NCBI GenBank assembly: GCA_021299835.1
Contig: JAJTER010000087.1
Location: 1-36,589, forward strand
Source: Saprospiraceae bacterium
GTDB taxonomy: Bacteria > Bacteroidota > Bacteroidia > Chitinophagales > Saprospiraceae
Length of the DNA stretch: 36,589 bases
Direction: 5' to 3'
Positions 3,188 to 36,589 of this stretch are shown piece by piece (the first letter of the stretch is position 1; the number at the start of each line of letters is the position of its first letter). Both the position numbers and the translations under genes were made by a program. Under the pieces are notes generated by a model. It searched no databases. It was given only the letters and a program-made list of their open reading frames with translations, and was not told the origin of the DNA.

Positions 3188-3498
3188 AAATATCTATTTT
3201 ATTTAAGGTTTTTATACGCTTTCGCCCCGATGAGTCGCAAAGTACTCTTCCAGGTGATGTATTATTGAGTAGTAAAAATACAAAAATTAATGCAATATTA
3301 AAAATAATTTATATTATAAAAATACTCGCCTTGCAAAATAACCACAAAACCAAACCAAAACCGTGACTCAAAACCTTTATTTGCCGAAAATATTACATTG
3401 GAACCTGTCGGGGATAAGACGCGAAGCATCGCGTCTCTACAAATAACTCGCCATCTATACCAAAGACCAACTCATATGGTATATCGACAGGAGCTAAG
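3188..3498. other. Intergenic region with repeat fragment
   Basis: No gene is visible. The left part is AT-rich. The right part (about 3361-3444) matches the outer tail of the interspersed composite repeat seen in region 3, including its hairpin. Confidence 0.6.
3361..3444 (+). repeat. Fragment of composite repeat, outer-tail hairpin module
   Basis: The segment holds ATATTACATTGGAACCTGTC followed by the hairpin AGACGCGA-AGCA-TCGCGTCT (3417-3436) and TCTACA. The same order occurs beside the full repeat copies at 23.6, 25.7 and 32.7 kb. Here the central palindrome and the rest of the element are absent, so this is a solo tail. Confidence 0.75.
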
Positions 3499-6097: not shown

Positions 6098-6134
6098 AGG
6101 TTATTGATTGAACAAAAAGAATGAGGTGGTTCAG

Positions 6135-7879: not shown

Positions 7880-7917
7880 AAATGTTACAAATAACCTACC
7901 TATTCATAACAAATACG

Positions 7918-7960
7918 CACCCTCTAATCCTCGAAATCCTGTAAATCCTGATTCAAAACC
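7918..7960 (+). repeat. Fragment of composite repeat, right-arm end
   Basis: The segment ends CCTGTAAATCCTGATTCAAA, the right-arm end of the interspersed composite repeat, preceded by a decayed CCTCTAATCCTCGAAAT stretch. It sits between the mntA start and the next nucleotidyltransferase gene, a 249-base gap with no gene. Confidence 0.7.
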
Positions 7961-8047
7961 ATAGCTATAAGCACACCAAAAACCAAAACAAAACCTCCCT
8001 TTATAAATAATTACAGATTTCTTTATATATGTTCTCGCATCGCTATT

Positions 8048-19637: not shown

Positions 19638-20234
19638 TTATGTTGGAAAAATTTCTTCCAATGAAAAACTTAAATCAGGAAAAATGCGGGAATGAAGGAT
19701 ATCAGGGGAATGAACAGCTGGAAGACCTACAAATTTGCCCTCTTCATTTAGTAAATAGGGCAAAACAAAAGAATCAATGGGATGAAAAATCCAATATTCT
19801 CTCACCCCTGCCAATTCATACACCTCAAATTTATCTTTCATATCTCTTCGACTATTACCTGGAGATAGAATTTCCACCACCAAATCTGGCGCCCCTTTTG
19901 CTCCCTTCTGATCTAATTTCTCCTGGTCACAAAAAACAGACAAATCAGGTTGCACGACCGTCGTATATTTTCCTTTCTTGATACCGACGGGTAATCTGAC
20001 ATCAAAGGGAGCGGGATAATATTCGCATGATTTTGATTGAAAAAAAATACCAAATAAGGTATTTAGGTTTCTGATAACCGTCTGATGAAGCCTATTCGGC
20101 GCAGCCATAGGTAAAACCTTACCAAAAATAAGTTCTACCCTTTCGGTGAATAGCCATTCATAATAATCATCATACGTATATTCTACTGTGCTGTCACAAA
20201 CCTGACTAAGTTGGGTGATTTTTTCCTTGTACAT
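19638..20234 (-). CDS. Uma2-family (DUF820) nuclease-fold protein, tandem copy 1
   Basis: A 198-residue Uma2 protein with the restriction-endonuclease-like fold. Putative active-site residues are D97 in VQPDLSVFC, E121 in DLVVEILSPGNS and K133/K135 in DMKDKFEVYE. It has ERVELIFGKVLPMAAPN near the start and REYWIFHP near the end. Uma2 genes are multiplied in cyanobacteria and some Bacteroidota; their target is unknown. It is very similar to the next gene. The main differences are around residues 55-70 and the short N- and C-terminal ends, so the pair is a recent tandem duplication. Confidence 0.85.
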   Translation of the reverse strand: MYKEKITQLSQVCDSTVEYTYDDYYEWLFTERVELIFGKVLPMAAPNRLHQTVIRNLNTLFGIFFQSKSCEYYPAPFDVRLPVGIKKGKYTTVVQPDLSVFCDQEKLDQKGAKGAPDLVVEILSPGNSRRDMKDKFEVYELAGVREYWIFHPIDSFVLPYLLNEEGKFVGLPAVHSPDILHSRIFPDLSFSLEEIFPT

Positions 20235-20261: not shown

Positions 20262-20867
20262 TTATTGAAAAATTCCTTCCAATGAAAAACTTAAATCAGG
20301 AAAAATACGGGAATGCAGGATATCAGGGGGATGAACGGATGGAAGGCCTATAAATTTTCCCTCTTCATTTAGTAAATAGGGTAAAACAAAGGAATCAATT
20401 GGATGAAAAATCCAATATTCTCTTACCCCCGCCAATTCATACACCTCAAATTTATCTTTCATATCTCTGCGGGAATTGCCTGGGGAAAGAATTTCCACCA
20501 CCAAATCTGGCGCCCCTTTTGCGCCCCTTTGATCCAATTTTTCCTGGTCACAAAAAACAGATAAATCAGGTTGAACGACCGTGGTAAATTTCCCTTTCTT
20601 GATGCCAACTGGTAGTCTGACATCAAAGGGAGCTGGATAATATTCGCATGACTTTCCTTTAAAAAAAGGATGAAATATCCCTGTTAGATTTCTTGCCATT
20701 GTTTGATGAATCCTATTTGGCGCAGCCATAGGTAAAACCTTACCAAAAATAAGTTCTACCCTTTCAGTAAATAACCATTCATAATAATCATCATACGTGT
20801 ATTCTACTGTACTTTCACAAACCTGACTAAGTTGTGTGATTTTTTTCTCCTTTACCTTTGGTTCCAT
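20262..20867 (-). CDS. Uma2-family (DUF820) nuclease-fold protein, tandem copy 2
   Basis: A 201-residue near-twin of the neighbouring Uma2 protein with the same candidate active-site residues (VQPDLSVFC, DLVVEILSPGNS, DMKDKFEVYE) and an intact frame. Differences cluster at RNLTGIFHPFFKGKSCEYY, where the other copy has RNLNTLFGIFFQSKSCEYY, so the two copies have diverged in one patch while the rest stayed nearly identical. The two lie 27 bases apart in the same orientation, downstream of the SPFH and ribbon-helix-helix genes. Function is unknown beyond the nuclease fold. Confidence 0.85.
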   Translation of the reverse strand: MEPKVKEKKITQLSQVCESTVEYTYDDYYEWLFTERVELIFGKVLPMAAPNRIHQTMARNLTGIFHPFFKGKSCEYYPAPFDVRLPVGIKKGKFTTVVQPDLSVFCDQEKLDQRGAKGAPDLVVEILSPGNSRRDMKDKFEVYELAGVREYWIFHPIDSFVLPYLLNEEGKFIGLPSVHPPDILHSRIFPDLSFSLEGIFQ

Positions 20868-23587: not shown

Positions 23588-23933
23588 GGTGACGACGATG
23601 GCGTGGCTATGCCCTGTAATGGAAGTAAATCCTGTAAATATAAGTTTTGAATCAGGATTTTCAAGATTTTCAGCATTAACTATAACGTCTCCGGTTTGGG
23701 AGGAAGGTTATTATTAAAAAGTGATTCCATTTTAAATCCTCTCGCCGCTGCGTTACGCAGCGGCGAAAAAAAGGGCATAAAGTAATCCTCTACGAAAACC
23801 CATTATACCCATACCAAAGACGTCCTCTATAATCCTGAAAATCTTGAAAATCCTGATTCAAAACCAGGTGAAAGCGTGCGAATATTACATTGAAACCTGT
23901 CGGGGAGAAGACGCGAGGCATCGCGTCTCTACA
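23588..23933 (+). mobile_element. Composite palindromic repeat, copy B
   Basis: Module order: a GGCGTGGCTATGCCC left end; a left arm starting TTTTGAATCAGGATTTTC (from 23644); a central hairpin at 23742-23766 with 12-bp perfect arms TCGCCGCTGCGT and ACGCAGCGGCGA; a right arm ending AATCCTGATTCAAAACCA (to about 23866); and a tail with the hairpin AGACGCGA-GGCA-TCGCGTCT. The two arms are imperfect inverted copies of each other, so the whole 23644-23866 part can fold on itself. It carries no gene. It lies between convergent genes and is the same orientation as copy C. Confidence 0.8.
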
Positions 23934-24029
23934 TTATGACATTCTGCCGTCAGGGGGTCAGGTATGAAATGGGGATTTTTTTTAGGATAGGTCAGATAAA
24001 CTATTTTTAGGTCAGAATGGCATTCGCTC
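23934..24029. other. Short spacer after copy B, no gene
   Basis: It completes the 446-base gap between the NagX-like and ATPase-nuclease genes. It contains GGCATTCGCTCCTACA, similar to the short hairpin unit at 26247-26265. Confidence 0.4.
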
Positions 24030-25592
24030 CTACATAGCATATAAAATAATCTCCTTGTTGTCAACAACATGTACTTCCCGACGGATGCGGTCTTCCCAGG
24101 ATAATTCAGCAGCGCTTTTCTTTTCGAGAAATACCATATATCCTGTTTTTTGACCCAATCGGTCCAAGTAACGGGCTAATTGTTGAATGCCATGTGGTTC
24201 GGAACGCGCGTCGTGGTGCATTTTTATTTCTATCGTTATAACCTGTGATTTCCAGAAAATGACTAAATCTGTCCGTCCATTTCCCGTTGCCATTTCTCTT
24301 TCGATGCGTCCTCCCCCATTGATAATCCGTTGCAAAAAAGCCATTAAAAATAATTGATGTCCAGCCTCTTTATATTTATATCTATCTATCCATGATTCTG
24401 AATTCCATCGATAAAAATCTGTAAATGCGTCCAGTAATTTATCCATATTCAGCGTACCATCTTTATTTATATACCAACTCGTTTGGGCTATGTCCTGATT
24501 GATACTTACAGAAAAGCCTATGGTCAGAATGCGAGTTATGATTTCTCTATAAATCGGATTGGCAAATTGAATAGGATTCCCCGTACTGATAATACCTAAA
24601 TCGCGGCAATAACGGATAGCATCATCCGCTCCATCAAAGGCAGGAGAATCACCCGTGATGATACTCATAATAATAGGTCGAACCCGGGGATCATCTATCT
24701 TGTCCGCTAAGCTATCCAGATGGGTTTGACGCTGTTCGATGAGCCGCTCTTTGGCTAGCTCAATCAAGTCCAGAGTGATTTCTTGGGTATAATCATTCTT
24801 GAGAAGCTCCCTTACCACCTCATTGGCCAACGCATTCGTCAACCAGGGTTGTCCACCAGAATAGGCATATAACTTTTCTAATACTTCCTCAGAAAAAACC
24901 TGACCAGTATCCTGCGTGTGTTGGTCCAATAATCCACGCACTTCCTCTTTTGAAAATGCAGGTAAAAAAAAAGATTTTGCTTTTATATTAAAAGGCGACC
25001 CTGAACCTATCGACGGATTATCTGCCCGGGCCCGCATGCGAAAATCACGGATATCTCGCAGGCCTACTAAGGCAATAGATTGAGGGAAATGTTTAGGACG
25101 GGTTTGAAAACCATCCCTTAATTGACGTAAAGTAGAAATAAGTACGTCGTCATAAAGAGCATCCACCTCATCAAGCAATAAAACCAAGGGTTTGTCAAGA
25201 AAACGACTCCAGTCAGTCAGATAATTCCTAAGTAAAATATTACTAGAGGAATAACTATTTGGATTGGGGGGCATTAAATCTGGGGGTAAAAAAACTTCTG
25301 CAGTCAAATACAAAGATTGTATAAACACCTCATTGGCCGTTTCCACGGTGATACTGTTATAACCCGCTGATTCCAAAGAACATACCACAGATACATAATT
25401 TCCTTCCTTATTCAGACGATGAGCCAAAGCGTGCAAGAAAGTAGTTTTACCCGTCTGCCGGGGAGCATGAATGAGAAAATATTGCATATCGTCAATCAAA
25501 ACATGTATGTCGTCATACATATTCCTGAAGGGATCGACCATGTAGTGTCTTTCCGCATTACACAGACCAGTGGTGTTGAATATTCTTCTCAT
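24030..25592 (-). CDS. AAA/STAND-like ATPase with C-terminal PD-(D/E)XK nuclease
   Basis: A 520-residue protein. The ATPase domain has Walker A APRQTGKTTF (about 43-52) and Walker B PLVLLLDEVDALYDD (about 134-148), then a winged-helix region (FSKEEVRGLLDQHTQDTG, YSGGQPWLTNALANEVVREL). The C-terminus carries the nuclease signature GRTDLVIFWK, then ITIEIKMHHD, with acidic D, E and K placed as in PD-(D/E)XK enzymes. It resembles archaeal-type or STAND ATPases and is a different lineage from the two AAA-ATPase-like proteins in region 1. The gene is alone, flanked by direct copies of the composite repeat (B and C). A role in defence or in mobility of the unit is possible but unproven. Confidence 0.82.
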   Translation of the reverse strand: MRRIFNTTGLCNAERHYMVDPFRNMYDDIHVLIDDMQYFLIHAPRQTGKTTFLHALAHRLNKEGNYVSVVCSLESAGYNSITVETANEVFIQSLYLTAEVFLPPDLMPPNPNSYSSSNILLRNYLTDWSRFLDKPLVLLLDEVDALYDDVLISTLRQLRDGFQTRPKHFPQSIALVGLRDIRDFRMRARADNPSIGSGSPFNIKAKSFFLPAFSKEEVRGLLDQHTQDTGQVFSEEVLEKLYAYSGGQPWLTNALANEVVRELLKNDYTQEITLDLIELAKERLIEQRQTHLDSLADKIDDPRVRPIIMSIITGDSPAFDGADDAIRYCRDLGIISTGNPIQFANPIYREIITRILTIGFSVSINQDIAQTSWYINKDGTLNMDKLLDAFTDFYRWNSESWIDRYKYKEAGHQLFLMAFLQRIINGGGRIEREMATGNGRTDLVIFWKSQVITIEIKMHHDARSEPHGIQQLARYLDRLGQKTGYMVFLEKKSAAELSWEDRIRREVHVVDNKEIILYAM

Positions 25593-25596
25593 TTGG

Positions 25597-25604
25597 CAAA
25601 GATA
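25597..25604 (-). promoter_or_regulatory. Candidate -7 box of the ATPase-nuclease gene
   Basis: The minus strand reads TATCTTTG four bases before the ATG. A transcript from here would be leaderless or start inside the gene, so the true start codon may be further downstream. No -33 box is visible. Confidence 0.35.
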
Positions 25605-25671
25605 CGCCTTTTTGATGTGGGATGTAGAGGATGTACGAAGATGGAGAAGAGGGATAACTTCGTTCTGGGTG

Positions 25672-26162
25672 TTACGAAGATGGCGGGGCTATGCCCCTAT
25701 GTGATGAAGAAGGGGTGAGTTACAGTAATCCTCTACGAATACCATTACACCTAGACCAAAAACTTCCTCTGTAATCCTCAAAATCCTGTAAATCCTGATT
25801 CAGAAATTATTTATGGGAAACATCCCAATTAACAAGTATGAACCCAGTCTTCGGGGGAAATTATGCGCGCTGCAGTCATTGGTTTTGAATCAGGATTTTC
25901 AAGATTTTCAGGATTAATTATAACGTCGTTGGTTTGAGTGGAAAGGTTATTATAAAATGGGGTTTTCGTTTTCTAGTCTTTCGCCGATGCGTAACGCATC
26001 GGCGAAAAGAAGGGTGAAAAGTAATCATCTACAAATAAACATCATTCCCAAATCGACGACGTCCTCTATAATCCTGTAAATCCTGATTCAAAACCAGGTG
26101 AAAGCGAATAAATATTACATTGGAACCTGTCGGGGAGAAGACGCGAGCATCGCGTCTCTACA
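25672..26162 (+). mobile_element. Composite palindromic repeat, copy C, with nested half copy
   Basis: The left end ACGAAGATGGC is followed by the hairpin GGGGC-TAT-GCCCC (25685-25697). A nested partial right arm (25723-25800) interrupts it, and the main element resumes at about 25832 with CCCAGTCTTCGGGGGAAATT. The left arm starts GGTTTTGAATCAGGATTTTC at 25881. The central hairpin is at 25981-26005 (arms TCGCCGATGCGT and ACGCATCGGCGA). The right arm ends at about 26095 and the AGACGCGAGCATCGCGTCT tail follows. It fills most of the 734-base gap between the ATPase-nuclease and DUF5682 genes; no gene is present. Confidence 0.8.
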
Positions 26163-26326
26163 GGGTATTCGAAACCTTATTAACTGGATGACCTGATGCT
26201 GGGTTACATTGTTCCGTAAATAGGGAAATGCGCCTGTATCACGGGAGGGCGAATGCGATTCGCCCCTACAATATGGTATAATATTTTGCAACTATGCTAA
26301 AAGTAAACCTACCTGAAGACCACACC
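26163..26326. repeat. Spacer with GC-rich hairpin unit
   Basis: It contains the hairpin GGGCGAAT-GCG-ATTCGCCC (26247-26265) followed by CTACAATATGG. Related GC-rich GCATTCGC / CCCCTACA pieces occur near 4524 and 24018, so this is a second, shorter repeat type. No gene is seen. Confidence 0.55.
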
Positions 26327-28534
26327 TCAACCCAATATTTGCTGAAATAAAGGCAAAAATTCCTTTATTTGGGGGTCATCCAGGCTAAAGGGTATATCTG
26401 ATTTAGGTAGCTCTTGTTTTGATTTGGACACTCTTTCCCAGATGTCTTGTTTTGCACTAACAGTAAATAGCGAAAAGGTGCGTCTGAGCAAGGGTAGGAC
26501 TTCGGGAAAATGGTCTTCTTTGATATCGGTAATCCACTGGTTGATTAAATCAAACATTTCCTGTTGATATTGTAACAAATACACTCCTCTTTTGAAAAAG
26601 CCTTCCAACCAGGCGCCAACTTGCAAAGGTTCATTCCCTTTTGAAAAAATCAAGGTCATTTTTGTCAGAATAAAATCTATGTCTAATCTATCTCTTTCCA
26701 GTAAAAGTCTCATAACCAATCCATTAATCCTCATATTTACACCGTCTAACTGAGCTGTAGTCAAAAGGGCATTTTCCCAAAGAGAAACAAATTCATTACC
26801 CTCCAATAGATAAATGGCGGCATGAGCATCGGATATTTGCTGCTCCATTATTTCCGCTGGCTCGTCGGCCAATTGATACGTTGCCTGGGGAAGCCCCGAA
26901 CAAATAGCAGGAATGATGGTATTTAACCATTGGTGCAATTTTTCTGGATAAACCGTTCGGTGGCTCGGATACCGCATAATTCTCACTAAAATAGGCAGCG
27001 ATTGCAAAAATTGGGAAATATCAGGAATGTCCACCGCCAGGGATCGCATTTTCAAAGAAAGAGTATCTACCAAGTTTTCAATGCCTGCAAGCATACATTT
27101 TTCCAAATAATGCACCAGCGTCAAGGTATCTGAAGCATTGAGAATAGCCGCCTCCATCTTCTTCTCAGCGGCTCTGGCAATCGTATTTCCCCACATACCT
27201 TTATCAATCAATTCTATGGTATAAATGGGCCTCCATTTTAATCGCCAATTTTCATGAAAACCTCCTTTCACCTGATCAGAAACAGCCTCTAAAGTACCCC
27301 AGGGAATGTCTAAAATATTGAGTTGATGTAGTAACAGACTGGCCATCCGATTGGCATTTACCCTTACATCTAGTTGCTTTCGAATGCTCTGTGTACTCTC
27401 AAATTCATTCTTTAATCTTGCGGTTTTTATTTGTTTATTTAAATCCGATTGTAATGGGGTCTGAGGAATATTAGAAGGAACCTGGCCTACTTTATCTCCA
27501 ATAATCCATTTAGACTGAATTTTTGCTATTAAAATATCTTTAGGTAATTGAAGGACAGATTCCAGTGCCAATTGGAGTTCATCCAGTCCTGCGTCGGGTT
27601 TATCTCTTAAATAGGAAAGATTGGAAGACAAGGCTAAAATAGCTTGCAAATGGGCTGGAGAAACATCAAATCCCTCTTTTCTGAACAATTTTGCAATGTG
27701 AATGAGCCAAATAGAAGGGGCATCTATTTGATGATTATATAACATTTCGTACCATGCGGGGGCCAACACTCCGGCTCCATACCCTGATTGTCTGGCTAAT
27801 CGGTCGTAACTCCATGGAATCCAGGTTCCTGCAATTTTAACTTTTGATAGACCGGTGAGCAGTGATTTGTCCTGTTTAGCCGTTATTTTGTTCCATTCCA
27901 ATAACGCTGGAATATGCCATGCACCGCAAACAACTGCTATTTTATTATAATTTTTCGCCATTTCGCTTCTAATCAGCTGACGCATCCAGGCTTCCCTCAA
28001 GAGCGTTTCCCTCGATTCCGTTCTATTTAACTGACCCCTCACTTCGATCATTACCTCCTGAAGGCCTTTAAAAACGTCCTCGTCTTCTCTTATTTGCTCG
28101 AAGGTGTGTTCCCACCAACGTTCGCTATCGGTATAACCCGATAATTGAGCCACCTGAGAAAGCGGATCCTTAACATAATTATCACGGATAATTTCAGTTT
28201 CCTGGGAAAGCGGCAACATCAAAGCAGCAGGCAAATCGAAGGGTATTAGGGGAATACCTCTTCTATTTGCAAAGGAGATGGCAATCCATTCTGGCGAAAA
28301 ATGAGCAAATGGAAGAATGAGACTATTTTTCAGTTGAAGGGGCTCATAAAGCAGGAGCGCAATAGGAGGAATTAGCCCCGGATCATTAACCGACGCAAAT
28401 AAATCGCTTGTTTCAGCAGGAGCTTCAATTATAATAGCATCCGGCTGCCATTTTTCAAGAAACCGAAGCATTCTTCTGGCAGAGCCTGGCCCGTGGTGCC
28501 TAATGCCAAGGAACTGAATTTCAGGCACTGACAT
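26327..28534 (-). CDS. DUF5682 family protein
   Basis: A 735-residue protein with the DUF5682 N-terminal signature IQFLGIRHHGPGSARRMLRF, then KWQPDAIIIEAP. This is the start of a TraB/ChaN/EreA-like fold in which conserved His and acidic residues are thought to bind metal. VVCGAWHIPALLEW follows near residue 210. The rest is mostly helical. Comparative-genomic work places DUF5682 with MoxR ATPases and, usually, vWA, SWIM and DUF5691 genes in predicted NTP-dependent conflict systems. Here it directly follows the MoxR gene, with the ATG abutting the MoxR stop, and the other partners are absent on both sides. Function is inferred from that association. Confidence 0.82.
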   Translation of the reverse strand: MSVPEIQFLGIRHHGPGSARRMLRFLEKWQPDAIIIEAPAETSDLFASVNDPGLIPPIALLLYEPLQLKNSLILPFAHFSPEWIAISFANRRGIPLIPFDLPAALMLPLSQETEIIRDNYVKDPLSQVAQLSGYTDSERWWEHTFEQIREDEDVFKGLQEVMIEVRGQLNRTESRETLLREAWMRQLIRSEMAKNYNKIAVVCGAWHIPALLEWNKITAKQDKSLLTGLSKVKIAGTWIPWSYDRLARQSGYGAGVLAPAWYEMLYNHQIDAPSIWLIHIAKLFRKEGFDVSPAHLQAILALSSNLSYLRDKPDAGLDELQLALESVLQLPKDILIAKIQSKWIIGDKVGQVPSNIPQTPLQSDLNKQIKTARLKNEFESTQSIRKQLDVRVNANRMASLLLHQLNILDIPWGTLEAVSDQVKGGFHENWRLKWRPIYTIELIDKGMWGNTIARAAEKKMEAAILNASDTLTLVHYLEKCMLAGIENLVDTLSLKMRSLAVDIPDISQFLQSLPILVRIMRYPSHRTVYPEKLHQWLNTIIPAICSGLPQATYQLADEPAEIMEQQISDAHAAIYLLEGNEFVSLWENALLTTAQLDGVNMRINGLVMRLLLERDRLDIDFILTKMTLIFSKGNEPLQVGAWLEGFFKRGVYLLQYQQEMFDLINQWITDIKEDHFPEVLPLLRRTFSLFTVSAKQDIWERVSKSKQELPKSDIPFSLDDPQIKEFLPLFQQILG

Positions 28535-29614
28535 TTACAATAATTCTCTGCAGGCCCGGTAGAGATCTTTCCATCCGTCTCTATCTTTGACCACTAATTG
28601 CAAATAATCTTTCCAAATGGGCAAATCATTATGGGTATCTTTAACAATGGCGCCGGAAAGAGCGGCAGCAATATCTGTTGCTTTCAACTGTCCGTTTCCA
28701 AAATGGTAGGCAAGCATTTGACCGCTATAAACAACTTCAATAGCCTCGGCGGTACTTAAAGTTGAGGAAGGGGATTTCAATTTTTGCTGACCATCAATGG
28801 TTTGGCCATTTCTTAATTCTCTGAAAATAGTGACAATTCTCTTTATTTCTTCCGTTGGGGTCGGGAAAGATTCCATTCCCAACTTTTTAACCGATTGCTC
28901 TACTCTATTTTTTATGATCAATATTTCTTCCTCTATCGTCTCGGGCAAAGGCATATAAACCATATTAAATCGTCGTCTTAATGCACCTGATAATTCATTT
29001 ATCCCTCTGTCGCGATCATTCGCCGTAGCAATTAAATTAAAACCATTCTTAGCCTGAAGGGTATCATTCAATTCCGGAATGGGCATTATTTTTTCTGAAA
29101 GAACGGTAATAAGTGCATCCTGAACTTCAGCGGGCAAGCGTGTTAATTCCTCTATTCGCACCAAAAGACCTTGCTCCATGGCATGGAAAACGGGACTTGG
29201 CACTAAAGATTCGCGGTCAGGACCATGGGACAAAAGCCTGGCATAATTCCAGGTATATTTTAATGCCTCCTCGCCTATACCCGCCGACCCCTGCACTAAA
29301 TAACCTGAATGACCACTAATAGCTGCTGCCAAGTGCTCAGCAACCCAGGTTTTTGCCGTTCCTGGTACTCCAACGAGTAAGAGCGCGCGATCTGTTGCTA
29401 AGGTAGCTACTGCCACCTCAATCAAGCGTCTCGAACCTATGTATTTTGGTGAAATAATAGTTCCATCAGACAATGTTGCCCCCATAAGATATTGGACAAC
29501 AGCATGTGGCGATAATAACCAGGAAGGCGGCCTCGGCTTTGAATCCTCCTGTTTTAGTGCCTGTAACTCGTCATTAAAAATACTTTCCGCCCGAGGTCGA
29601 AGGATTTCACCCAT
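28535..29614 (-). CDS. MoxR-type AAA ATPase
   Basis: A 359-residue MoxR-family ATPase. Walker A is in LLVGVPGTAKTWVAEHL (about 79-95). The Walker B region reads GLLVRIEELTRLPAEVQDAL, with E-E instead of the usual D-E, a variant I recall from the DUF5682-linked subgroup. The sensor-1 region is NLIATANDRDRGINELSGAL, and an arginine finger follows in LRRRFNMVYMPLPET. MoxR proteins work with vWA-domain partners as chaperones that remodel or activate other proteins. The next gene is DUF5682, contiguous. Upstream, the DUF3299-like gene ends only 12 bases away, so it may share the metal-transport transcript. Confidence 0.88.
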   Translation of the reverse strand: MGEILRPRAESIFNDELQALKQEDSKPRPPSWLLSPHAVVQYLMGATLSDGTIISPKYIGSRRLIEVAVATLATDRALLLVGVPGTAKTWVAEHLAAAISGHSGYLVQGSAGIGEEALKYTWNYARLLSHGPDRESLVPSPVFHAMEQGLLVRIEELTRLPAEVQDALITVLSEKIMPIPELNDTLQAKNGFNLIATANDRDRGINELSGALRRRFNMVYMPLPETIEEEILIIKNRVEQSVKKLGMESFPTPTEEIKRIVTIFRELRNGQTIDGQQKLKSPSSTLSTAEAIEVVYSGQMLAYHFGNGQLKATDIAAALSGAIVKDTHNDLPIWKDYLQLVVKDRDGWKDLYRACRELL

Positions 29615-29626
29615 CTGAAATGGATT

Positions 29627-30094
29627 TTAGTTAGGTTTACTTACTAAAACGGCATCGGATAGACTATATATCAAACGATTAATATCATTATCGTTTAAAC
29701 TTAATTTTCCTTTAATGGTAATGGATTCAGCCGTATATTTAATAGGTTCCTGAGAAAACACCTCCATAACCGTTTCAGGTCCGGCGCCGCCACAAAAGAA
29801 ACACATACTGTAAGGGAAAGCTGAGAACACAAATTCCTTATGATTTTTATACCCCTCCACTGGAATGATATATCCCTTTATTTCAACGGTTTTACCTTCA
29901 AGCACCTTAATTTCCTCACTGAAAATGGGCACATCGACCTTAAAACCCAGAGATTCGTCCATTACTTTTTTGTAAGTGATTTTACCTAACGTCTGCCACA
30001 GATTTTTTGCTCCCTGAGCAGAAAGAGAAGTAGATGAAAATACAAAAAATAATCCTGTAACCAGAATAGAACATTTTAACGCTTGCCTTATCAT
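29627..30094 (-). CDS. DUF3299-like exported protein
   Basis: From ATG at 30094 it encodes a 155-residue secreted protein. The open frame extends to 30133, but the internal ATG gives a proper signal peptide (MIRQALKCSILVTGLFFVFS, then STSLSAQ). The mature part has VEIKGYIIPVEGYKN and the conserved FPYSMCFFCGGAGPETVMEV motif with two cysteines, which marks DUF3299-like proteins. Such proteins often sit next to LolCDE/MacB-like ABC genes, in some bacteria within zinc-responsive clusters. It follows the broken permease gene. A periplasmic metal-handling role is possible but inferred. Confidence 0.78.
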   Translation of the reverse strand: MIRQALKCSILVTGLFFVFSSTSLSAQGAKNLWQTLGKITYKKVMDESLGFKVDVPIFSEEIKVLEGKTVEIKGYIIPVEGYKNHKEFVFSAFPYSMCFFCGGAGPETVMEVFSQEPIKYTAESITIKGKLSLNDNDINRLIYSLSDAVLVSKPN

Positions 30095-30104
30095 AATTTT
30101 TTGT

Positions 30105-31273
30105 TTATCCTTTATTGTCAGCCAAAGTGGCATGAATATCTGTTTTACTTGCTTGAAAAGCAGGAATAATGGCGGCTATGATACCAATAACCAAAGATCC
30201 GCCAAATATATATATTTCTTCCTTTAGAAAAATAGCCGCCGAAAAATCATACCGATAACTTTTCTCCAAAAAATCGGCCAATAAAACCATCGAGCCATGA
30301 CTCAGTGAAATACCACAAAAATAACCTAAGACAGCGATAATAATTCCTTCAAAAATAATAAGCTGAAAAAGGAAACCCGGTCTGGCACCTAAGGTTCTCA
30401 TAACCGCTAACTCATATTTTCTTTCTCTTAGGGAACTAAACAAAGAAATGAAAATACTTAATCCTGAAACGAAAATTATGAGTAAAGCCATCGCTTTTAA
30501 AGCCTCCTCGCCTACGCCAAGCAAGGTATATAATCGATTAATTTCAATGGCTGGCGTGGCCGCCTGAAAATTAGTATTTTCATTAATATTTCTTGCCATA
30601 TTTAAGGCTTGAATATTTCTTCTTTTAAATTTCACCAATAACGAAGTAATACTTTTATCTTCATAAGATGTTAAAGGTAAATCCTCGGAATGCTCCGCTT
30701 CCTCGTGTTCATGGTCATGCTCTGCTTCGTTATGTTCCGTAGATTCTTCTGCCTCGTGGTCGTGCTCATCATGGACTTCCCAGATACTTTGTGTTTTAGT
30801 TACAATTAGTTGATCAATGACAGACCCCGTTTTTTCCAGTATGCCCACACAACCTCCATATTTTCCTCAAAAAGCTTACCATCGGCAAATTTTGCCTCAT
30901 ATAGATCGATAAAACCAGTGTTTGTTCCAACTATTCTATATCCCCTGTGACTATCGCCCAAAGAAAGGGGAATAGCACTTTTAAAAATGGGATGTTTAGG
31001 ATTCAGGAATGCTTTAGATTCTGAAACAGGCATATTTCCCGTAGGGGCGTCCAAATGGTATAAACTACTTAATATTAGCTGCAAAGGACTGCCTTTAGCG
31101 CCAATAACTAAGTCAATCCCTGCAAAATTCTTTTCAAACTTGTCCTCCAATTGGACATTCACCAATAAAAGCAAAGAGATGAGACCAACGCCCAATGCGA
31201 AGAGCACCAGGTTTAGGACTAAATTTAGCGGTTTATTCAGAATGTTTTTCCAACTTAAATGCAAAATATTCAT
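30105..31273 (-). pseudogene. MacB/LolE-like ABC permease, His-rich, broken by deletion and frameshift
   Basis: Two frames form one FtsX-type permease. The N-terminal frame (31273 to 30806) has an N-terminal membrane helix (NLVLNLVLFALGVGLISLLL) and the periplasmic domain (IDLVIGAKGSPLQLILSSLY), and runs into WAYWKKRG and a stop. The C-terminal frame resumes at VGILEKTGSVIDQL, has a histidine-acid stretch (HDEHDHEAEESTEHNEAE), and ends with three membrane helices (ALLIIFVSGLSIFISLF, GIIIAVLGYFCGIS, LVIGIIAAIIPAF). In relatives, EENMEVV is followed by 30-40 residues (LGAEVAKK...) before VGIL. Those are missing and the join changes frame. The His-rich loop suggests zinc or another transition metal. 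Not functional as read. Confidence 0.8.
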
Positions 31274-31306
31274 AGACTACTCTTTCAATTCTCCTTACAA
31301 GAATCC

Positions 31307-31936
31307 CTATTTTAATAATAATTGTTTATGAAAAGCAGAAGTTAATCTGTTATCATGTGTAACCACAAGCAAAATCGCCTTTACCGCCTCTGCAGATTCC
31401 TTAAGTAAATTTTGTACTTCAGTACTATTTTTGTCATCCAGTGCCGAAGTAGGTTCGTCTGCCAGAATCAACCGGGGCTGATTAACAACAGCGCGGGCAA
31501 TGGCCACCCTTTGCTGTTCCCCCGCACTTAATCTATTGGGTTTTTGATTTGCCTTATGAGCGATTTGTAATCTTTCCAAAAGATCCATTATCTTCTTTTT
31601 GTCTAAAGATTTCCCACCCAATTGCTGTGTCAATAGCAGATTTTCCATAACGGAAAGAGACTGAACCGCATGAGCCTTTTGAAAAACAATACCTATGTTT
31701 TCCCCTCTGAATTTATCTAATCTGGCGGCTGAAATAGTAGCATAATTAAAATCACCTAAAGTCACATTACCTTCGGTTGGTGATAATAATCCGCCTAAAA
31801 GATGCAATAAAGTAGTTTTTCCCGAACCAGAAGGACCGAGAATTAACCATTGGTCACCTTGTTCTGCCGTAAAATCAGGAAACCGAATGGGGGTAGATCC
31901 TGAATATTGAAAGGATAGATTTATTGATTTAAGCAT
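31307..31936 (-). CDS. LolD/MacB-type ABC transporter ATPase
   Basis: A 209-residue stand-alone ATPase: Walker A GPSGSGKTT (about 34-42), Q-loop near NIGIVFQKAHAVQSL, signature LSAGEQQR, Walker B LILADEPTSALDD and H-loop in LLVVTHDNRL. All motifs are intact. It belongs to the subfamily that drives FtsX-type permeases for lipoprotein release, macrolide efflux or metal-linked systems. Its partner permease lies just downstream but is broken, so the ATPase may have no functional partner here. First gene of the minus-strand run that leads through DUF3299 to MoxR and DUF5682. Confidence 0.88.
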   Translation of the reverse strand: MLKSINLSFQYSGSTPIRFPDFTAEQGDQWLILGPSGSGKTTLLHLLGGLLSPTEGNVTLGDFNYATISAARLDKFRGENIGIVFQKAHAVQSLSVMENLLLTQQLGGKSLDKKKIMDLLERLQIAHKANQKPNRLSAGEQQRVAIARAVVNQPRLILADEPTSALDDKNSTEVQNLLKESAEAVKAILLVVTHDNRLTSAFHKQLLLK

Positions 31937-31941
31937 AAGGG

Positions 31942-31949
31942 CAAAGATA
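31942..31949 (-). promoter_or_regulatory. Candidate -7 box of the ABC operon
   Basis: The minus strand reads TATCTTTG six bases before the ATG at 31936, with TTTG boxes 12 and 22 bases further upstream. The spacing to the start codon is short, implying a leaderless or near-leaderless transcript. Confidence 0.45.
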
Positions 31950-32005
31950 CATTTTGAATATCAAAGTTACACAAACCTCAATGAAGGATTATATTTCTTT
32001 TTTCT

Positions 32006-32013
32006 TATTTTTG
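32006..32013 (+). promoter_or_regulatory. Candidate -7 box of the lipoprotein gene
   Basis: TATTTTTG matches TAnnTTTG and lies 31 bases before the preferred ATG at 32044. This supports that start over the earlier ATG at 31954, which would lie upstream of the promoter. No clear -33 box. Confidence 0.45.
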
Positions 32014-32043
32014 CCATTTAATGGTAAAATAAATTATGAACGA

Positions 32044-32481
32044 ATGTTAACAAGGCAAAAAATCAAGGGGCATTTTGTTATGCTCTCTTTTTTCAGTATT
32101 TTTTTAGTCACTTCCTGTCAAAATGATGCTTCAACAAAAAATGAATCGTCTACAGAAAATAAAGAAGTTACAGCGCAAAAGACAACATTAAAAAATGTCC
32201 ATTTTGATTGTAGCATGGTCATGGGAAATGATAAAACGCTATTTTTAAGGTATAACAATGTGGCAACAGGCATGGGTGCAGTTTTGTCATGCAAGACCCT
32301 AGAGGCGAAAGATTTTAAAAATCGGAATATCCCCGTTGCCGCTTTAGCCGCTTGCTCTGTTGAATCGGCTCAAGGTAATACGGTTTATTACACCATTAAA
32401 AAGGGTGATGTTTTATATATTTTCAAAGAAAATGCAAATAGCAAAATGTATACTGAGCATCTGATTATTCCTCTTATCTGA
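32044..32481 (+). CDS. Small lipoprotein, unknown function
   Basis: From ATG at 32044 it encodes 145 residues: a basic start (MLTRQKIKGHF), a hydrophobic stretch and a lipobox FLVTSC, so the mature protein is anchored to a membrane through that cysteine. The linker is rich in N, S, T and E. The core (VHFDCSMVMGNDKTLFLRYN, then SCKTLEAKDFKNRNIPVAAL, AACSV) contains three cysteines that could form a disulfide. The frame is open from 31954, but that extension lies upstream of the candidate promoter. I do not recognise a family. It diverges from the ABC operon and ends in a strong terminator. Confidence 0.75.
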   Translation: MLTRQKIKGHFVMLSFFSIFLVTSCQNDASTKNESSTENKEVTAQKTTLKNVHFDCSMVMGNDKTLFLRYNNVATGMGAVLSCKTLEAKDFKNRNIPVAALAACSVESAQGNTVYYTIKKGDVLYIFKENANSKMYTEHLIIPLI

Positions 32482-32507
32482 TAAGATGTTCATTTCAAAA
32501 ATAATTA

Positions 32508-32543
32508 AGAGGGGCTGCCTAAAAAGGTAGCCTCTCTTTTTTT
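32508..32543 (+). terminator. Rho-independent terminator after the lipoprotein gene
   Basis: A 13-bp stem, AGAGGGGCTGCCT (32508-32520) with AGGTAGCCTCTCT (32525-32537), has an AAAA loop and two G-U pairs, followed by seven T. It lies 27 bases after the lipoprotein stop codon. Confidence 0.85.
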
Positions 32544-32684
32544 CTATTTTATATACTGGGTCATAGTGCCGCCAGGGGCTAAAGAAAAAATTAGAAAATT
32601 TTCTAAGATTATGCCCGATGGATATTTACCCCTAACACTTGGTTCTGAATCAGGATTTTGAGGTTTACGGGATTTCACGGTTTC
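32544..32684. other. Spacer with a partial repeat arm, no gene
   Basis: Part of the 668-base gap between the lipoprotein and gamma-glutamyltransferase genes. It ends with a decayed arm of the composite repeat (GGTTCTGAATCAGGATTTTG, 32641-32660). Confidence 0.5.
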
Positions 32685-33102
32685 GTAGAGACGCGATGCT
32701 TCGCGTCTTCTCCCCGATAGGTTTCGATTTAATATTTACCCCTAACGTCCGGTTTTGAATCAGGATTTACAGGATTTTGAGGATTACAGAGAACGTCTTT
32801 GTTTTGGGTATAGTGGTTATTTGTAGAGGATTACTTTTTAACCTTCTTTTCGCCGATGCGTAACGCATCGGCGAAAAGCCAGGAAATGAAAGCACCGTTT
32901 AATAATAATCCTCCCATGCCAACCATCGACGTTATGGTTAATCCTATACATCCTGAAAATCCTGATTCAAAACCTGAGGCTGCTGCGCGAACAATTTCCA
33001 CCGACGACAGGGTGTCTAGTCTTCGTATCAAACATAATGTTTATTCGTATATGCATACTATCGTGTAAACTCGCAGGGGCATAGCCCCGCCATCTTCGTA
33101 AC
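32685..33102 (-). mobile_element. Composite palindromic repeat, copy D, inverted
   Basis: All modules occur in reverse order and orientation relative to B, C and E: the tail hairpin first (32686-32712), then an arm starting GGTTTTGAATCAGGATTTAC at 32751, and the central hairpin at 32846-32878 with 16-bp perfect arms (CTTTTCGCCGATGCGT and complement) around a single A. The other arm ends ATCCTGATTCAAAACC at about 32974. The CCACCGACGAC segment follows, and finally the outer GGGGC-ATA-GCCCC hairpin (33076-33088). It lies between convergent genes. It carries no gene of its own. Confidence 0.8.
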
Positions 33103-33149
33103 ACTCCACCGTCGTAGGGTCATAATGTTTTAGACAGCCCCTCGACATG

Positions 33150-34874
33150 TTAATACCCTGACACGCCGCCATCGAAACTGCGAGAATCGGCAGCGCCATA
33201 CCTTATTTTTGTAGTCGGATCTATATAAATGCCCATGGCTTGTCCTTGTCTGCCTCTTGAAACCGATGGGTGCCCCATAGCCTCATATAGTTTTTTCGTG
33301 TCTGGTGAAAATCCCCAACCTTCCATTGACGTTTGGTCGGGTAACCATTGATGATGAATACGGGGTGTTTCAATAGCCTCACCCATGTTCATGCTATGAT
33401 CGATTACATTTAAAATAACCTGTAAAACAGTGTTAATAATAGTCCGACCTCCCGGAGAACCAATCACCAAAACAGGTTTACCATCTAATGCAACAATAGT
33501 AGGTGTCATGCTCGAAAGCATTCTTTTATGAGGTGCCACCAAATTAGGCGGGGTACCAACCTGACCTTTTCTGTTAGTTACGCCAGGAACCGGATTAAAA
33601 TCGCCCATTTCATTATTCAAAAGAAAACCAGTACCATCGGCCATCAATCTGGAACCATAGCTATATTCCAGGGTGTAGGTAACAGAAACCGCATTTCCCC
33701 AGGCATCTACTACTGAAAAATGGGTCGTTTCATCACTTTCCTTAGGCAAATAAAGTGACCCAAAAGCAGCGCTATCACTTTTTGATGCTTTATCCATTTG
33801 AATAGAAGCAGCCAATAATTCAGCATAATCCTTGCTTATTAATTTTTCAATCGGCATATCCTTATTAAAGTTAGGATCACCGATATACTGAGCTCTGTCT
33901 GCAAAAGCTCTGCGCATTACTTCCGTAAGAACATGCAGATATTCGGCACTATTGGGACCCATTTTCCGCAGGTCATATTTTTCCAGCATATTCAGCATTT
34001 CCATAATAGCTACGCCACCTGAGCTAGGCGGAGGCATACCGATAATATCGAAACCTCTGTAATTTCCAATAATTGGTTTAAGTTCCTCCGCTTCATAATT
34101 AGCCAGATCTTTGGCTGTTATGATACCCCCATGTTTTTTCATATAAGCCTCCAGCAAAGCAGCGGTTTCTCCTTTGTAAAAACCGTCCCTTCCTTGTAAT
34201 TGAATTCGTTTCAGTGATGCTGCCAAATCAGGTTGTTTCCAAAGTTCACCTGGCTTATATAATTCTGTACCATTTTTAAGAAAAGCCTTTTTTGCCGCAG
34301 CAAATACAGGCTGTTTTTGTTTTTGAAAATAGCTTAGAATATCTTGCATATCCCAGGTAGAAGGAAAACCATTTTCTGCCAGTTCAACAGAAGGTTTTAC
34401 CAAATCAGCCCAAGGTTTAGATCCCAGTTTTCCATGTGCCATCCATAAGCCAGCTACTGTACCGGGTACACCAACGGAAAGAGGGCCTTCATGATTTGAA
34501 TTATCTTTAATCTGACCATTTGCATCGAGATACATTCTTTCGGAAGCAGCCTGAGGCGCTTTTTCGCGAAAATTAAAGGTAGTGGAAGTACCGTCAGCGC
34601 CGTGATATACCATAAATCCTCCACCGCCAATGTTACCCGCAGAAGGAAGCGTTACAGCCAATGCAAAAGCCGTAGCAATAGCAGCATCAACAGCATTTCC
34701 TCCATTTTTAAGCACCTGCATTCCAGCTTGAGATGCTAGATAGTGACTACTCACCACCATTCCGTTTTTTGCCGGGGCGGGAATACGACCATGTTGACCA
34801 CTCAGCGTATTTAACGGAACAGCAAGGACTAAGCTAATTATCCAAAGGCTAAAATTAATTTTCGTCATCATCAT
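33150..34874 (-). CDS. ggt: Gamma-glutamyltransferase
   Basis: A 574-residue periplasmic Ntn hydrolase with an N-terminal signal sequence (FSLWIISLVLAVPLNTLSG). Conserved features include GGNAVDAAIATAFALAV, LPSAGNIGGGGFMV, VGVPGTVAGLW and PPPSSGGVAIMEML. The self-processing site is at TTHFSVVD, with the nucleophile T383 beginning the small subunit. MLSSMTPTIV holds the oxyanion serines, and GSPGGRTIINTVLQVI follows. It cleaves gamma-glutamyl bonds of glutathione and related peptides, yielding glutamate and cysteinyl-glycine. Length and motifs are normal. It stands alone, divergent from the GH1 gene. Confidence 0.95.
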   Translation of the reverse strand: MMMTKINFSLWIISLVLAVPLNTLSGQHGRIPAPAKNGMVVSSHYLASQAGMQVLKNGGNAVDAAIATAFALAVTLPSAGNIGGGGFMVYHGADGTSTTFNFREKAPQAASERMYLDANGQIKDNSNHEGPLSVGVPGTVAGLWMAHGKLGSKPWADLVKPSVELAENGFPSTWDMQDILSYFQKQKQPVFAAAKKAFLKNGTELYKPGELWKQPDLAASLKRIQLQGRDGFYKGETAALLEAYMKKHGGIITAKDLANYEAEELKPIIGNYRGFDIIGMPPPSSGGVAIMEMLNMLEKYDLRKMGPNSAEYLHVLTEVMRRAFADRAQYIGDPNFNKDMPIEKLISKDYAELLAASIQMDKASKSDSAAFGSLYLPKESDETTHFSVVDAWGNAVSVTYTLEYSYGSRLMADGTGFLLNNEMGDFNPVPGVTNRKGQVGTPPNLVAPHKRMLSSMTPTIVALDGKPVLVIGSPGGRTIINTVLQVILNVIDHSMNMGEAIETPRIHHQWLPDQTSMEGWGFSPDTKKLYEAMGHPSVSRGRQGQAMGIYIDPTTKIRYGAADSRSFDGGVSGY

Positions 34875-34968
34875 TTTAAAATTACTTCTCTAATGTATGC
34901 TAAAAATACCTAAATTAGGAAAAATCTAATGTACTTTTATTTATTTACCGGCGCAACCAATTTTTTGA

Positions 34969-36276
34969 ATGAAATGGCTACCTCTACTTTTACTTTGCAT
35001 TTTACCACATATAACGCAATCTATGCATAAATTTCCACCTGAATTTTTATGGGGTACCGCCGCTTCGGCCTATCAGACAGAAGGTAATAATATCAATAAC
35101 GATTGGTACCATTACGAGCAAATAGAGTCTAAAAAACCTGAAAATAAGAGAAAATTAGCTGGAATTTGTGGTCAGGCAACCATGCAATGGCAAAATTATG
35201 AACAAGATTACGATTTAGCTCAAAAAATGGGCGTAAAAATTCATCGACTTTCCATAGAATGGTCCCGCATTTTTCCAACCCCTGACAAACCCGATGAAGA
35301 AGCATTAGCCATTTATAAAAAACAATTGGTCAGTCTTCACCAACGAGGTATAAAAACCATGGTTTGTCTTCACCATTTTACCATCCCCATCTGGGTACTG
35401 CAAAAAGGAGGCTTCCTGAACAGAGAATATTTTCTAAAGCAATTTCAACAATATCTGGAAGTTGTCATTCCCTATCTTGCCGATGAGGTCGATTATTGGC
35501 TACCGATTAATGAGCCCAACATAGTACCTTCTGCATCCTATCTGATAGGAATGTTTCCCCCTTATAAAAAAAATATTTTCCAATACCTGAGAGTTTATCG
35601 GCTGATGATTGAAATGCATGCTGCTGCGTATCATGTGATTAAAAAACACGATAAGCAAGCGCCCGTTGGCGTCGCTTTCGCGTACATGCACTTTCAACCG
35701 TTCAATGCAAAGAATAAATGGCAACAATTCTTAAGTTATTTGTCTGACAAATGGGCAAACAGGATTTTCTTTGAAGCCGTTGTCAACGGACGTTGGTCAT
35801 TTCCCCTTGGTTGGGGAGGTGCCGCACCTGAAGTTAAAGGGACCCTCGATTTCACTGGATTAAATTACTATACAACGCTCTATTTGAAAAATACAGGCCC
35901 GGTACCTTTCAAAAAAGGGGATGTGATAACAGATATGGGTTGGGTCGTTTATCCTAAAGGGATCTATGCCATTCTACATCAGCTATTTAAAATAACAAAT
36001 AAGCCAATTATTGTTACTGAAAATGGCACTGCTACAACAGAAGAATCGTTCCGGATTGATTATTATAAAAGTCATTTAACTGAAATTCATAAGGCTATGT
36101 CGGAAGGAGTACCTGTGAAGGGATATATGGCCTGGAGCCTGACCGATAATTATGAATGGCAACATGCTTATTCCAAAAAATTCGGATTAATTTCTATTGA
36201 TCCTATTTCTATGGAAAGAACCTTGAAAAAAAGTGGCTGGTGGTACAAGGAAGTGATTGAAAATAATGGATTTTAA
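34969..36276 (+). CDS. Family 1 glycoside hydrolase (beta-glucosidase type)
   Basis: A 435-residue GH1 enzyme with an N-terminal signal peptide (LPLLLLCILPHITQS). The family opening FPPEFLWGTAASAYQTEG is followed by IEWSRIFP, the acid/base motif NEP (E182), FTGLNYYT, the nucleophile motif TENG (E351) and YMAWSLTDNYEW. GH1 members cleave beta-glucosides, galactosides or related linkages. Export is uncommon for GH1 and points to a periplasmic or envelope role, perhaps trimming oligosaccharides outside the cytoplasm. Both catalytic glutamates are present. Substrate specificity cannot be read from the motifs. Confidence 0.92.
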   Translation: MKWLPLLLLCILPHITQSMHKFPPEFLWGTAASAYQTEGNNINNDWYHYEQIESKKPENKRKLAGICGQATMQWQNYEQDYDLAQKMGVKIHRLSIEWSRIFPTPDKPDEEALAIYKKQLVSLHQRGIKTMVCLHHFTIPIWVLQKGGFLNREYFLKQFQQYLEVVIPYLADEVDYWLPINEPNIVPSASYLIGMFPPYKKNIFQYLRVYRLMIEMHAAAYHVIKKHDKQAPVGVAFAYMHFQPFNAKNKWQQFLSYLSDKWANRIFFEAVVNGRWSFPLGWGGAAPEVKGTLDFTGLNYYTTLYLKNTGPVPFKKGDVITDMGWVVYPKGIYAILHQLFKITNKPIIVTENGTATTEESFRIDYYKSHLTEIHKAMSEGVPVKGYMAWSLTDNYEWQHAYSKKFGLISIDPISMERTLKKSGWWYKEVIENNGF

Positions 36277-36278
36277 GT

Positions 36279-36589
36279 AACGAAGAGGACGGGACTATGC
36301 CCCTTGTAAGTTTATACGAAATAATCCATTTACGAATAAACACCCAGTCGTCGGTGGAAATGATACGCGCGGCAGCCACTGGTTTTGAATCAGGATTTAC
36401 AGGATGTACGGGGTAACTATAACGTCGTTGGTTGACATGGGAAGATTATTATTAAACGGTGTCATCATTTCCCGGCTTTTCGCCGATGCGTAACGCATCG
36501 GCGAAAAGAAGTGTAAAAAGTAACCCTCTACAAATAAAAACTATACCCAAACCGAAGACGTTCACTGTAATCCTCAAAATCTTGTAAAT
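36279..36589 (+). mobile_element. Composite palindromic repeat, copy E, cut by window end
   Basis: It starts three bases after the GH1 stop codon: ACGAAGAGGACGGGACTATG, then CCCAGTCGTCGGTGGAAATG, the arm GGTTTTGAATCAGGATTTAC (about 36383), the central hairpin with 16-bp arms at 36476-36508, and the right arm running to the window end. It has the same orientation as B and C. It fills the last 313 bases; no gene is present. Confidence 0.8.

What the first reader, a model, noticed from the sequence alone, without database searches (positions are those of the whole stretch)
23588..36589. A composite, self-complementary repeat family of about 0.35-0.5 kb with at least four copies in 13 kb
Copies B, C, D and E share the same module order: a GGGGC-TAT-GCCCC outer hairpin, a GTCGTCGGTGGAAAT-like segment (not clear in B), a GAATCAGGATTT arm, a GC-rich central hairpin, an inverted arm, and an AGACGCGA...TCGCGTCT tail hairpin. 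One copy is inverted as a unit, and fragments occur at 3361-3444 and 7918-7960. There is no internal gene. Modular order plus whole-unit inversion suggests a non-autonomous mobile element, or a structured RNA/DNA device spread between genes. All copies lie at gene ends, B and D between convergent genes.
Basis: partly seen in the sequence, partly recalled or inferred. Interest (0 to 1): 0.75.

Follow-up and report, generated by a model that had tools for sequence, protein, structure and literature searches.

The report
Palindromic repeats related to nuclease cassettes
The repeats are a large family of gene-less palindromic DNA elements whose ends match inverted repeats that bracket a small nuclease-like gene (called GxxExxY) in related bacteria, which points to a little-known type of selfish bacterial DNA.

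Summary
The repeat family is real. Copies B, C, D (inverted) and E share a 220-nt imperfect palindrome; 128 BLAST pieces lie in this 4.0-Mb assembly, and each of the seven genus genomes has 42-65 matches. Module order is polar: R lies 5' of the core in 57 of 114 copies, 3' in none. The GGGGC-TAT-GCCCC 'outer hairpin' is probably separate: degenerate copies stand at sister sites without the element. Sister species have empty or short sites and variable arrays.

The one RAYT-type gene has other palindromes. Instead the core's ends match terminal inverted repeats (TIRs) beside GxxExxY (PD-(D/E)XK-type) genes and gene-less palindromes in distant Bacteroidota. GxxExxY flanks match each other beyond controls, and in two searches TIR versions stayed with the genomes whose gene bears them. 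TIR-bounded genes occur in the same genus, some with ends multiplied in tandem.

Best reading: non-autonomous derivatives of a nuclease-encoding TIR element, analogous to REPIN/RAYT with an unrelated enzyme. Mobilisation by the nuclease is inferred: no target duplication was found, this assembly shows no TIR-bounded copy, and arms do not covary within copies.

The parts
23644..23933 (+). Copy B: palindromic core (about 23644-23865) plus tail T with AGACGCGAGGCATCGCGTCT hairpin (23908-23932); no R segment
   Evidence: profile hit 295 bits; sequence
25707..26162 (+). Copy C: extra half core (25707-25805), R segment (from 25847), core (about 25882-26097), tail T (hairpin 26138-26161)
   Evidence: profile hits 293 and 69 bits; sequence
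32620..33012 (-). Copy D, inverted: T unit with its own arm (about 32640-32684) and hairpin (32685-32709), core (about 32751-32977), R segment (32994-33008 and around)
   Evidence: profile hit 320 bits; short sites in G121, G123, G124
36334..36589 (+). Copy E: R segment (from 36347) and core, cut off by the contig end
   Evidence: profile hit 192 bits; present in G048 and G120, absent in G124
3358..3440 (+). Fragment: core 3' end plus tail T
   Evidence: profile positions 206-289, 47 bits
7885..7961 (+). Fragment: 3' half of the core (one arm)
   Evidence: profile positions 148-224, 39 bits
25977..26009 (.). Central GC hairpin of copy C (equivalents 23738-23770, 32846-32878, 36476-36508); the part with clear within-copy covariation
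   Evidence: (family D8)
33076..33088 (.). GGGGC-TAT-GCCCC 'outer hairpin' near D (exact copy also at 25685-25697, imperfect near 36290-36302): probably a separate repeat
   Evidence: degenerate copies at sister sites lacking D

Best explanation
The copies are non-autonomous (gene-less) palindromic elements, relatives of a small mobile cassette made of one gene for a GxxExxY-type PD-(D/E)XK protein (PF13366/TIGR04256) between terminal inverted repeats built of several 9-11-nt words. The window's arms (TGAATCAGGATTTACAGGATT...) are one version of those ends. Shown: the end match, locus-specific TIRs around many but not all GxxExxY genes tested, the same TIR version on gene and gene-less palindromes in single genomes, empty or short sites in sisters, and tandem multiplication of cassette ends. 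Inferred: the nuclease recognises its TIR or hairpin, cuts there or at a target, and host repair or replication copies the element or its ends into intergenic gaps; repeated end-copying builds the modular arrays seen here. In this genus the family expanded greatly, and many copies may now be passive relics kept where they do least harm, often between convergent genes.
For: Copy number and spread: 128 BLAST pieces in the own assembly, matches in all 6 same-genus genomes, 122 distinct complete cores. Ends: arms of all 4 window cores against TIRs of GxxExxY loci in G395 and G150 score above all 1000 shuffles; the 20-mer arm (up to 1 mismatch) is in 17 of 296 phylum genomes, own included, with 0 for the reversed control; several distant copies are inverted pairs. 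Cassettes: mean flank self-match in 30 g2-type and 29 g1-type loci exceeds all 2000 permutation means; 19 of 30 and 12 of 28 exceed the 99% level of 212 control genes, which come from window-genus loci. Linked variants: G093 TIR 29 hits, 0 in 19 other genomes, 7 gene-less inverted pairs; CGAATT version 4 and 4 in G498 and G236, 1 weak in G398, 0 in 17. Arm-positive genomes hold strong g2 homologues (E <= 1e-30) 11 of 16 against 47 of 279, Fisher p 1.4e-5, not corrected for phylogeny. Same genus: TIR-bounded gene in G120 and G048 (related end version) and in G124 (another version), with ends repeated at 183 and 139 nt in G120 and 171 nt in G124. Mobility: sites D, E and L117 empty or short in sisters.
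Against: No clean target-site duplication was found. Empty sites are not base-exact: G121 and G123 carry other repeats at site D, and loss rather than gain is not excluded there. The own assembly has only a g1-type GxxExxY gene without visible TIR and a short, partial one. The genes nearest to exact window arms (L119, L058) lie between palindromes, not inside one TIR pair. The TIR of the same-genus cassettes (CACGGATT version) is near the shuffle limit against cores B and C (0-1 of 1000 shuffles as good). 5 of 16 arm-positive genomes lack a strong g2 homologue. A first test found no arm motif in 31 GxxExxY loci. In one search the own partner is the single best match in only 7 of 30 and 11 of 29; 11 of 30 and 16 of 28 loci stay below the 99% control level. 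Arms do not covary within window-genus copies. Of 8 plasmid-borne GxxExxY genes, 3 scored 36-45 and 5 scored 15-22, among the latter Persicobacter, the closest relative of L119 there. The structure model was poor (pLDDT 46).
Confidence: 0.6

Rival explanations
1. Classical REP/REPIN elements moved by a RAYT (TnpA-REP); the GTAG-tagged tail hairpin would be the REP.
For: The tail reads GTAG-AGACGCGA..TCGCGTCT, a GTAG-tagged hairpin; REPINs are inverted pairs and form tandem clusters (PMC3116915, abstract and passages).
Against: The one Y1 transposase gene found in the assembly is flanked by other palindromes. The core and its arms show no GTAG tag; the tail is incomplete or absent in 87 of 153 complete cores.
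Confidence: 0.12
2. Domesticated RNA or DNA structures at gene ends (terminators, mRNA 3'-end protectors, supercoiling buffers), conserved for host function.
For: Central GC hairpin has compensatory changes (z 11.3; CG to TA in 9 and 11 of 122 copies at two pairs); 40 of 73 occupied gaps are convergent against 14 of 123 unoccupied.
Against: Orthologous sites are empty or of different length between sisters; the hairpin has Ts before and As after it, not a T run after; no Rfam match at gathering scores; outer arms do not covary. Gap counts use a simple ORF caller and include orthologous sites, so the test is inflated, and avoidance of promoters is also expected of tolerated insertions.
Confidence: 0.15
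3. Passive repeats: slippage, foldback duplication and homologous recombination spread ordinary intergenic DNA with no enzyme of its own.
For: Tandem multiplication of ends and units, variable array lengths; no target duplication seen.
Against: Dispersal to many intergenic gaps, distant taxa sharing exact arms, and gene-linked TIR variants are not expected.
Confidence: 0.13

Closest known systems
REPIN / RAYT system (REP doublets and REP-associated tyrosine transposases; PMC3116915 abstract and passages, PMC3733652 passages)
   Same: Gene-less palindromic intergenic elements in high copy, an enzyme gene beside or inside the same repeats, several versions each linked to its own gene, tandem clusters
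   Different: Enzyme is a PD-(D/E)XK-type protein, not an HUH tyrosine transposase; ends are multi-word TIRs without GTAG (the GTAG hairpin is only in the optional tail)
MITEs derived from insertion sequences (e.g. MITECca01 of Cardinium, PMC9769881, passages)
   Same: Short, no ORF, terminal inverted repeats shared with a gene-bearing parent
   Different: Proposed parent encodes no known transposase; target duplication not shown; arrays are modular
GxxExxY proteins (TIGR04256 / PF13366 PDDEXK_3)
   Same: Gene family inside or beside such TIRs in the same genus and elsewhere
   Different: Window elements carry no gene; I found no paper that gives the family a function or mobility
Rpn (recombination-promoting nuclease) proteins (PMC5350276, PMC10327210; search listing only; their PD-(D/E)XK fold is recalled)
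   Same: Nucleases that have been linked to DNA mobilisation
   Different: Different family; I recall no TIR-bounded gene-less derivatives

Membership tests
MITE (non-autonomous TIR element) | Terminal inverted repeats, short, no ORF, many copies | tested here: met
   220-nt core with about 30-nt TIRs, 122 distinct complete copies; no ORF of 100 aa or more in the window copies
MITE (non-autonomous TIR element) | Gene-bearing parent with the same TIR | tested here: inconclusive
   TIR-bounded GxxExxY genes in same-genus genomes have a related (CACGGATT) or other end version; the window arm version stands beside genes in G150 and G395; none found in the own assembly
MITE (non-autonomous TIR element) | Target-site duplication | tested here: inconclusive
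   none clean at D or E; a loose ~27-nt resemblance at L117 by eye
REP/REPIN with RAYT | RAYT gene flanked by the same repeats | tested here: not met
   the one Y1 transposase gene found has other palindromes
REP/REPIN with RAYT | GTAG (or CGTC) tag at the hairpin foot | tested here: inconclusive
   GTAG present on the optional tail hairpin only
GxxExxY-associated TIR elements (proposed) | Ends match TIRs of GxxExxY cassettes | tested here: met
   above all 1000 shuffles for all 4 cores against G150 and G395 TIRs; weaker for B and C against the same-genus L301 TIR
GxxExxY-associated TIR elements (proposed) | Nuclease acts on the ends | not testable with these tools
   needs biochemistry
Known structured RNA | Match to an Rfam family | tested here: not met
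   0 matches in the window at gathering scores

The most novel reading that the evidence does not exclude
GxxExxY PD-(D/E)XK genes are the cores of an undescribed class of bacterial mobile element: TIR-bounded single-nuclease cassettes, with multi-word TIRs that diversify together with the gene, that insert in core operons, restriction-modification and surface-sugar loci, multiply their own ends in tandem, and spawn gene-less palindromes; the window shows an extreme expansion of such palindromes.
Probability: 0.45. Interest if true: 0.85.

Novelty: new variant of a known kind. Interest (0 to 1): 0.7.

Why it matters
TIGR04256 genes occur in 80 of 120 genomes searched in this family, with no function that I found in print. 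If they are mobile nuclease cassettes that move palindromic repeats, a protein family of unknown role and several families of unexplained intergenic repeats get one testable explanation, and an enzyme class unrelated to RAYTs would be shown to drive REPIN-like repeats.

Tried and rejected
RAYT partner: not supported in this assembly. Simple link 'arm motif near any GxxExxY gene': rejected at first, 0 of 31 loci (L031, L032, L129-L157); revived only after other genomes showed that TIR words differ by locus, so the TIR tests were designed after seeing examples; searches then searched whole genomes for copies not seen before. The names g1 and g2 mean 'found with L031 or family-model best scorers' and 'found with the L119 protein'; I built no tree. 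Folding of the long arms as a maintained structure: not supported. '0 of 436 profile hits inside an ORF' is not used as evidence: copy C's core has stops in all six frames. Phage or plasmid carriage: no match of the copy C core-plus-tail in plasmids or phages; the arm 20-mer is in 4 stretches of viral contigs; the L119 protein gave no relative in viral contigs, the alignment A1 one; L031's protein none in phages. PDB: one irrelevant match at E 0.36. AlphaFold from 3 sequences: too poor, so no fold search was run. Literature: ten searches; sequence words, GxxExxY and PDDEXK_3 gave nothing relevant. The unit count double-counts starts and is not used. One search's 128 matches are BLAST pieces on both strands, not copies.
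Full report
WHAT IS THERE. The window is contig C67 of a 4.04-Mb, 205-contig assembly. Named records with the arm are mostly MAGs labelled Haliscomenobacteraceae, Saprospiraceae, Haliscomenobacter hydrossis or Bacteroidetes. One search finds long direct and inverted matches among 23.6-24.0, 25.7-26.2, 32.6-33.0 and 36.3-36.6 kb. A profile built from nine copies hits B, C, D (minus strand) and E with 192-320 bits, plus fragments at 3358-3440 and 7885-7961. The loci then in hand gave 378 non-overlapping hits, 153 with a complete core, 122 distinct (loci overlap and were de-duplicated by sequence). The core is a 220-nt imperfect palindrome, TTTTGAATCAGGATTTACAGGATT...AATCCTGTAAATCCTGATTCAAAA, with a central hairpin CGCCGATGCG-TNA-CGCATCGGCG. 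Of 114 distinct cores with enough flank, segment R lies 5' in 57 and 3' in 0, tail T 3' in 47 and 5' in 9, both R 5' and T 3' in 27, neither in 35 (orientation comes from a profile that includes the tail, so only the R polarity is independent). So the order is shared, but most copies are not the full composite.

STRUCTURE. Within-copy pairing compared with pairing after permuting copies: core positions 100-110, the GC hairpin, z 11.3; positions 80-100 z 2.4 and 3.2; positions 0-30 z -0.2 to 0.6; 30-40 z -5.1; over all pairs 0.682 against 0.677. So the hairpin is maintained copy by copy, the outer arms are conserved as sequence. CG to TA changes occur in 9 and 11 of 122 copies at two hairpin pairs; at pair 105-117, 28 of 122 are mismatched CT or AG.

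DISTRIBUTION AND MOBILITY. In one search (40 genomes, own included) the 7 genomes of the genus have 42-65 matches each; of the 33 others only G015 matches (4 matches, best E 5.6e-5). Two window genes have orthologues at 96-98% and 92-99% protein identity in six sisters. Between flank matches, site D spans 519-694 nt in the window against 130 in G123, 131 in G121 and 94 in G124; site E spans 614 in G120 against 67 in G124; L117 512 against 64 in L058. Many other orthologous sites are occupied with different array lengths, for example 1764, 840, 941 and 2043 nt. At D a degenerate form of the outer hairpin (AGGCATAGCCCT, GGGCATAGACCT) with its neighbouring sequence stands in G123 and G121 without the element, so it is probably a separate repeat. 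Among 196 intergenic gaps in window-genus loci, 40 of 73 with an element are convergent and 5 divergent, against 14 and 44 of 123 without (simple ORF caller, orthologous sites not removed).

PARTNER GENE. The one Y1 (RAYT-type) gene found in the assembly is flanked by TGACCCCTCCGGGGTCA and GCCGCCAGGG palindromes, not by this family. In 296 phylum genomes a 20-mer (up to 1 mismatch) occurs in 17, own included; the reversed control is 0 in all. In several distant genomes these arms form inverted pairs bounding short palindromes, TTGTCTGAATCAGG...CCTGATTCAGACAA, and some stand directly beside a GxxExxY gene (L223, L228/L239, L238). GxxExxY proteins hit PF13366 PDDEXK_3 and TIGR04256; D67, E77 and K79, which I take as the active site, are invariant in 25 aligned sequences.

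TIR TESTS. I took the 30 loci that the tool fetched for the best homologues of the L119 protein, one per genome (160 of 395 genomes match at E <= 1e-15, so these are the top of the list), and L031 plus the 29 fetched best-scoring loci of the family model (29 of 30 had enough flank). Upstream against reverse-complemented downstream flank scores 33.0 on average against 22.4 for mismatched pairs (highest of 2000 permutation means 28.8), and 28.2 against 17.9 (25.5); the own partner is the single best match in only 7 of 30 and 11 of 29. Against 212 control genes from window-genus loci, 19 of 30 and 12 of 28 exceed the 99% level. The TIR words differ by locus: AGGATT, AGAATT, CGAATT, CACGGAG, CGCAGAG. 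In G093 the gene's TIR has 29 hits (up to 3 mismatches) including 7 gene-less inverted pairs 51-60 nt apart, and none in 19 other genomes; gene-less copies show matched changes in both arms, for example GTCAC with GTGAC (L282) and GTAAC with GTTAC (L284). The CGAATT version (up to 2 mismatches) occurs 4 times each in G498 and G236, once in G398, not in 17 others, G349 of the same genus among them.

SAME GENUS. In G120 (L300) and G048 (L301) a GxxExxY gene lies inside TIRs TTTGAATCACGGATTTAGAGGATTAATGGATTT. These are orthologous places (92-95%). In G120 the upstream end is repeated 3.3 times with period 183 and the downstream end, gene 3' part included, 4.1 times with period 139; G048 has about two and one. 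In G124 (L299), with another TIR version, TIR plus 5' gene part is repeated with period 171. I take this end multiplication as the likely source of the modular arrays; that is inference. The D T-unit arm aligns with the L301 TIR above all 1000 shuffles, and all four window cores do so with G150 and G395 TIRs; cores B and C are at the edge against L301 (0-1 of 1000), and no core matches the G093 TIR.

CONTEXT OF THE CASSETTES. ORFs next to the 30 L119-type loci: 12 of 59 HsdS, 3 N6 methylase, 3 HsdR; next to family-model loci: 9 of 54 GDP-mannose dehydratase/epimerase, 2 HsdR, 1 HsdS. There was no set of random genes as a control, so this is descriptive. Named cases: fabD-[GxxExxY]-fabG in Sphingomonas parapaucimobilis against a junction without it in S. 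paeninsulae, and radA-[GxxExxY]-FAD gene in Bacteroides finegoldii against Parabacteroides distasonis; Phocaeicola massiliensis has a different, longer stretch between radA and the FAD gene. These pairs are different species at about 72% DNA identity, so the junctions are not base-exact. Of 8 plasmid-borne genes tested, 3 have flank scores of 36-45 and 5 have 15-22; viral contig L312 scores 26.

MECHANISM. Shown: shared ends, gene-linked end versions in the genomes tested, presence and absence at orthologous sites, end multiplication. Inferred: the nuclease acts on the ends or hairpins, and repair copies them. Not shown: cleavage, transposition, target duplication. In the own assembly the GxxExxY genes are one without visible TIR (L031) and a short one matching residues 29-92, so the window's copies may now be immobile; the assembly is fragmented and could hide a copy.

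LITERATURE. REPINs and RAYTs were read as abstract and passages (PMC3116915; PMC3733652 passages). The Cardinium MITE paper was read as passages. The GxxExxY search gave two papers; the passage of PMC8934634 concerns annotation near a reverse transcriptase, the other was seen in the listing only. PDDEXK_3 gave none; arm, tail and TIR words gave none relevant. The library lacks most subscription journals, so absence from print is not established.

CHANGES AFTER CHECKING.

Noticed in passing
window 8048-8464 (-) and 7472-7798 (-): MntA-type antitoxin (NF047752) and a second nucleotidyltransferase-like gene: a possible type VII toxin-antitoxin cluster
   Followed up: no
L319 (fabD/fabG, Sphingomonas parapaucimobilis) and L317 (radA/FAD gene, Bacteroides finegoldii): GxxExxY cassettes with TIRs sit between core genes whose junction lacks them in other species (L323, L321)
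   Followed up: partly
L250, L255, L253: The GxxExxY reading frame runs on through the downstream TIR, giving C-terminal tails such as NPVNPDSDK
   Followed up: no
L033: The RAYT-type gene found has its own palindromes (TGACCCCTCCGGGGTCA, GCCGCCAGGG); GCCGCCAGGGGC also occurs near site D (window 32569)
   Followed up: partly
window 19646-19945 and 20267-20566; 3497-3680 and 6133-6316: Direct repeats of 91% and 84% that look like duplicated genes or gene pieces
   Followed up: no
window 26258: Another GTAG-tagged palindrome (ATTCGCCCCTAC / GTAGGGGCGAAT), a separate REP-like repeat
   Followed up: no
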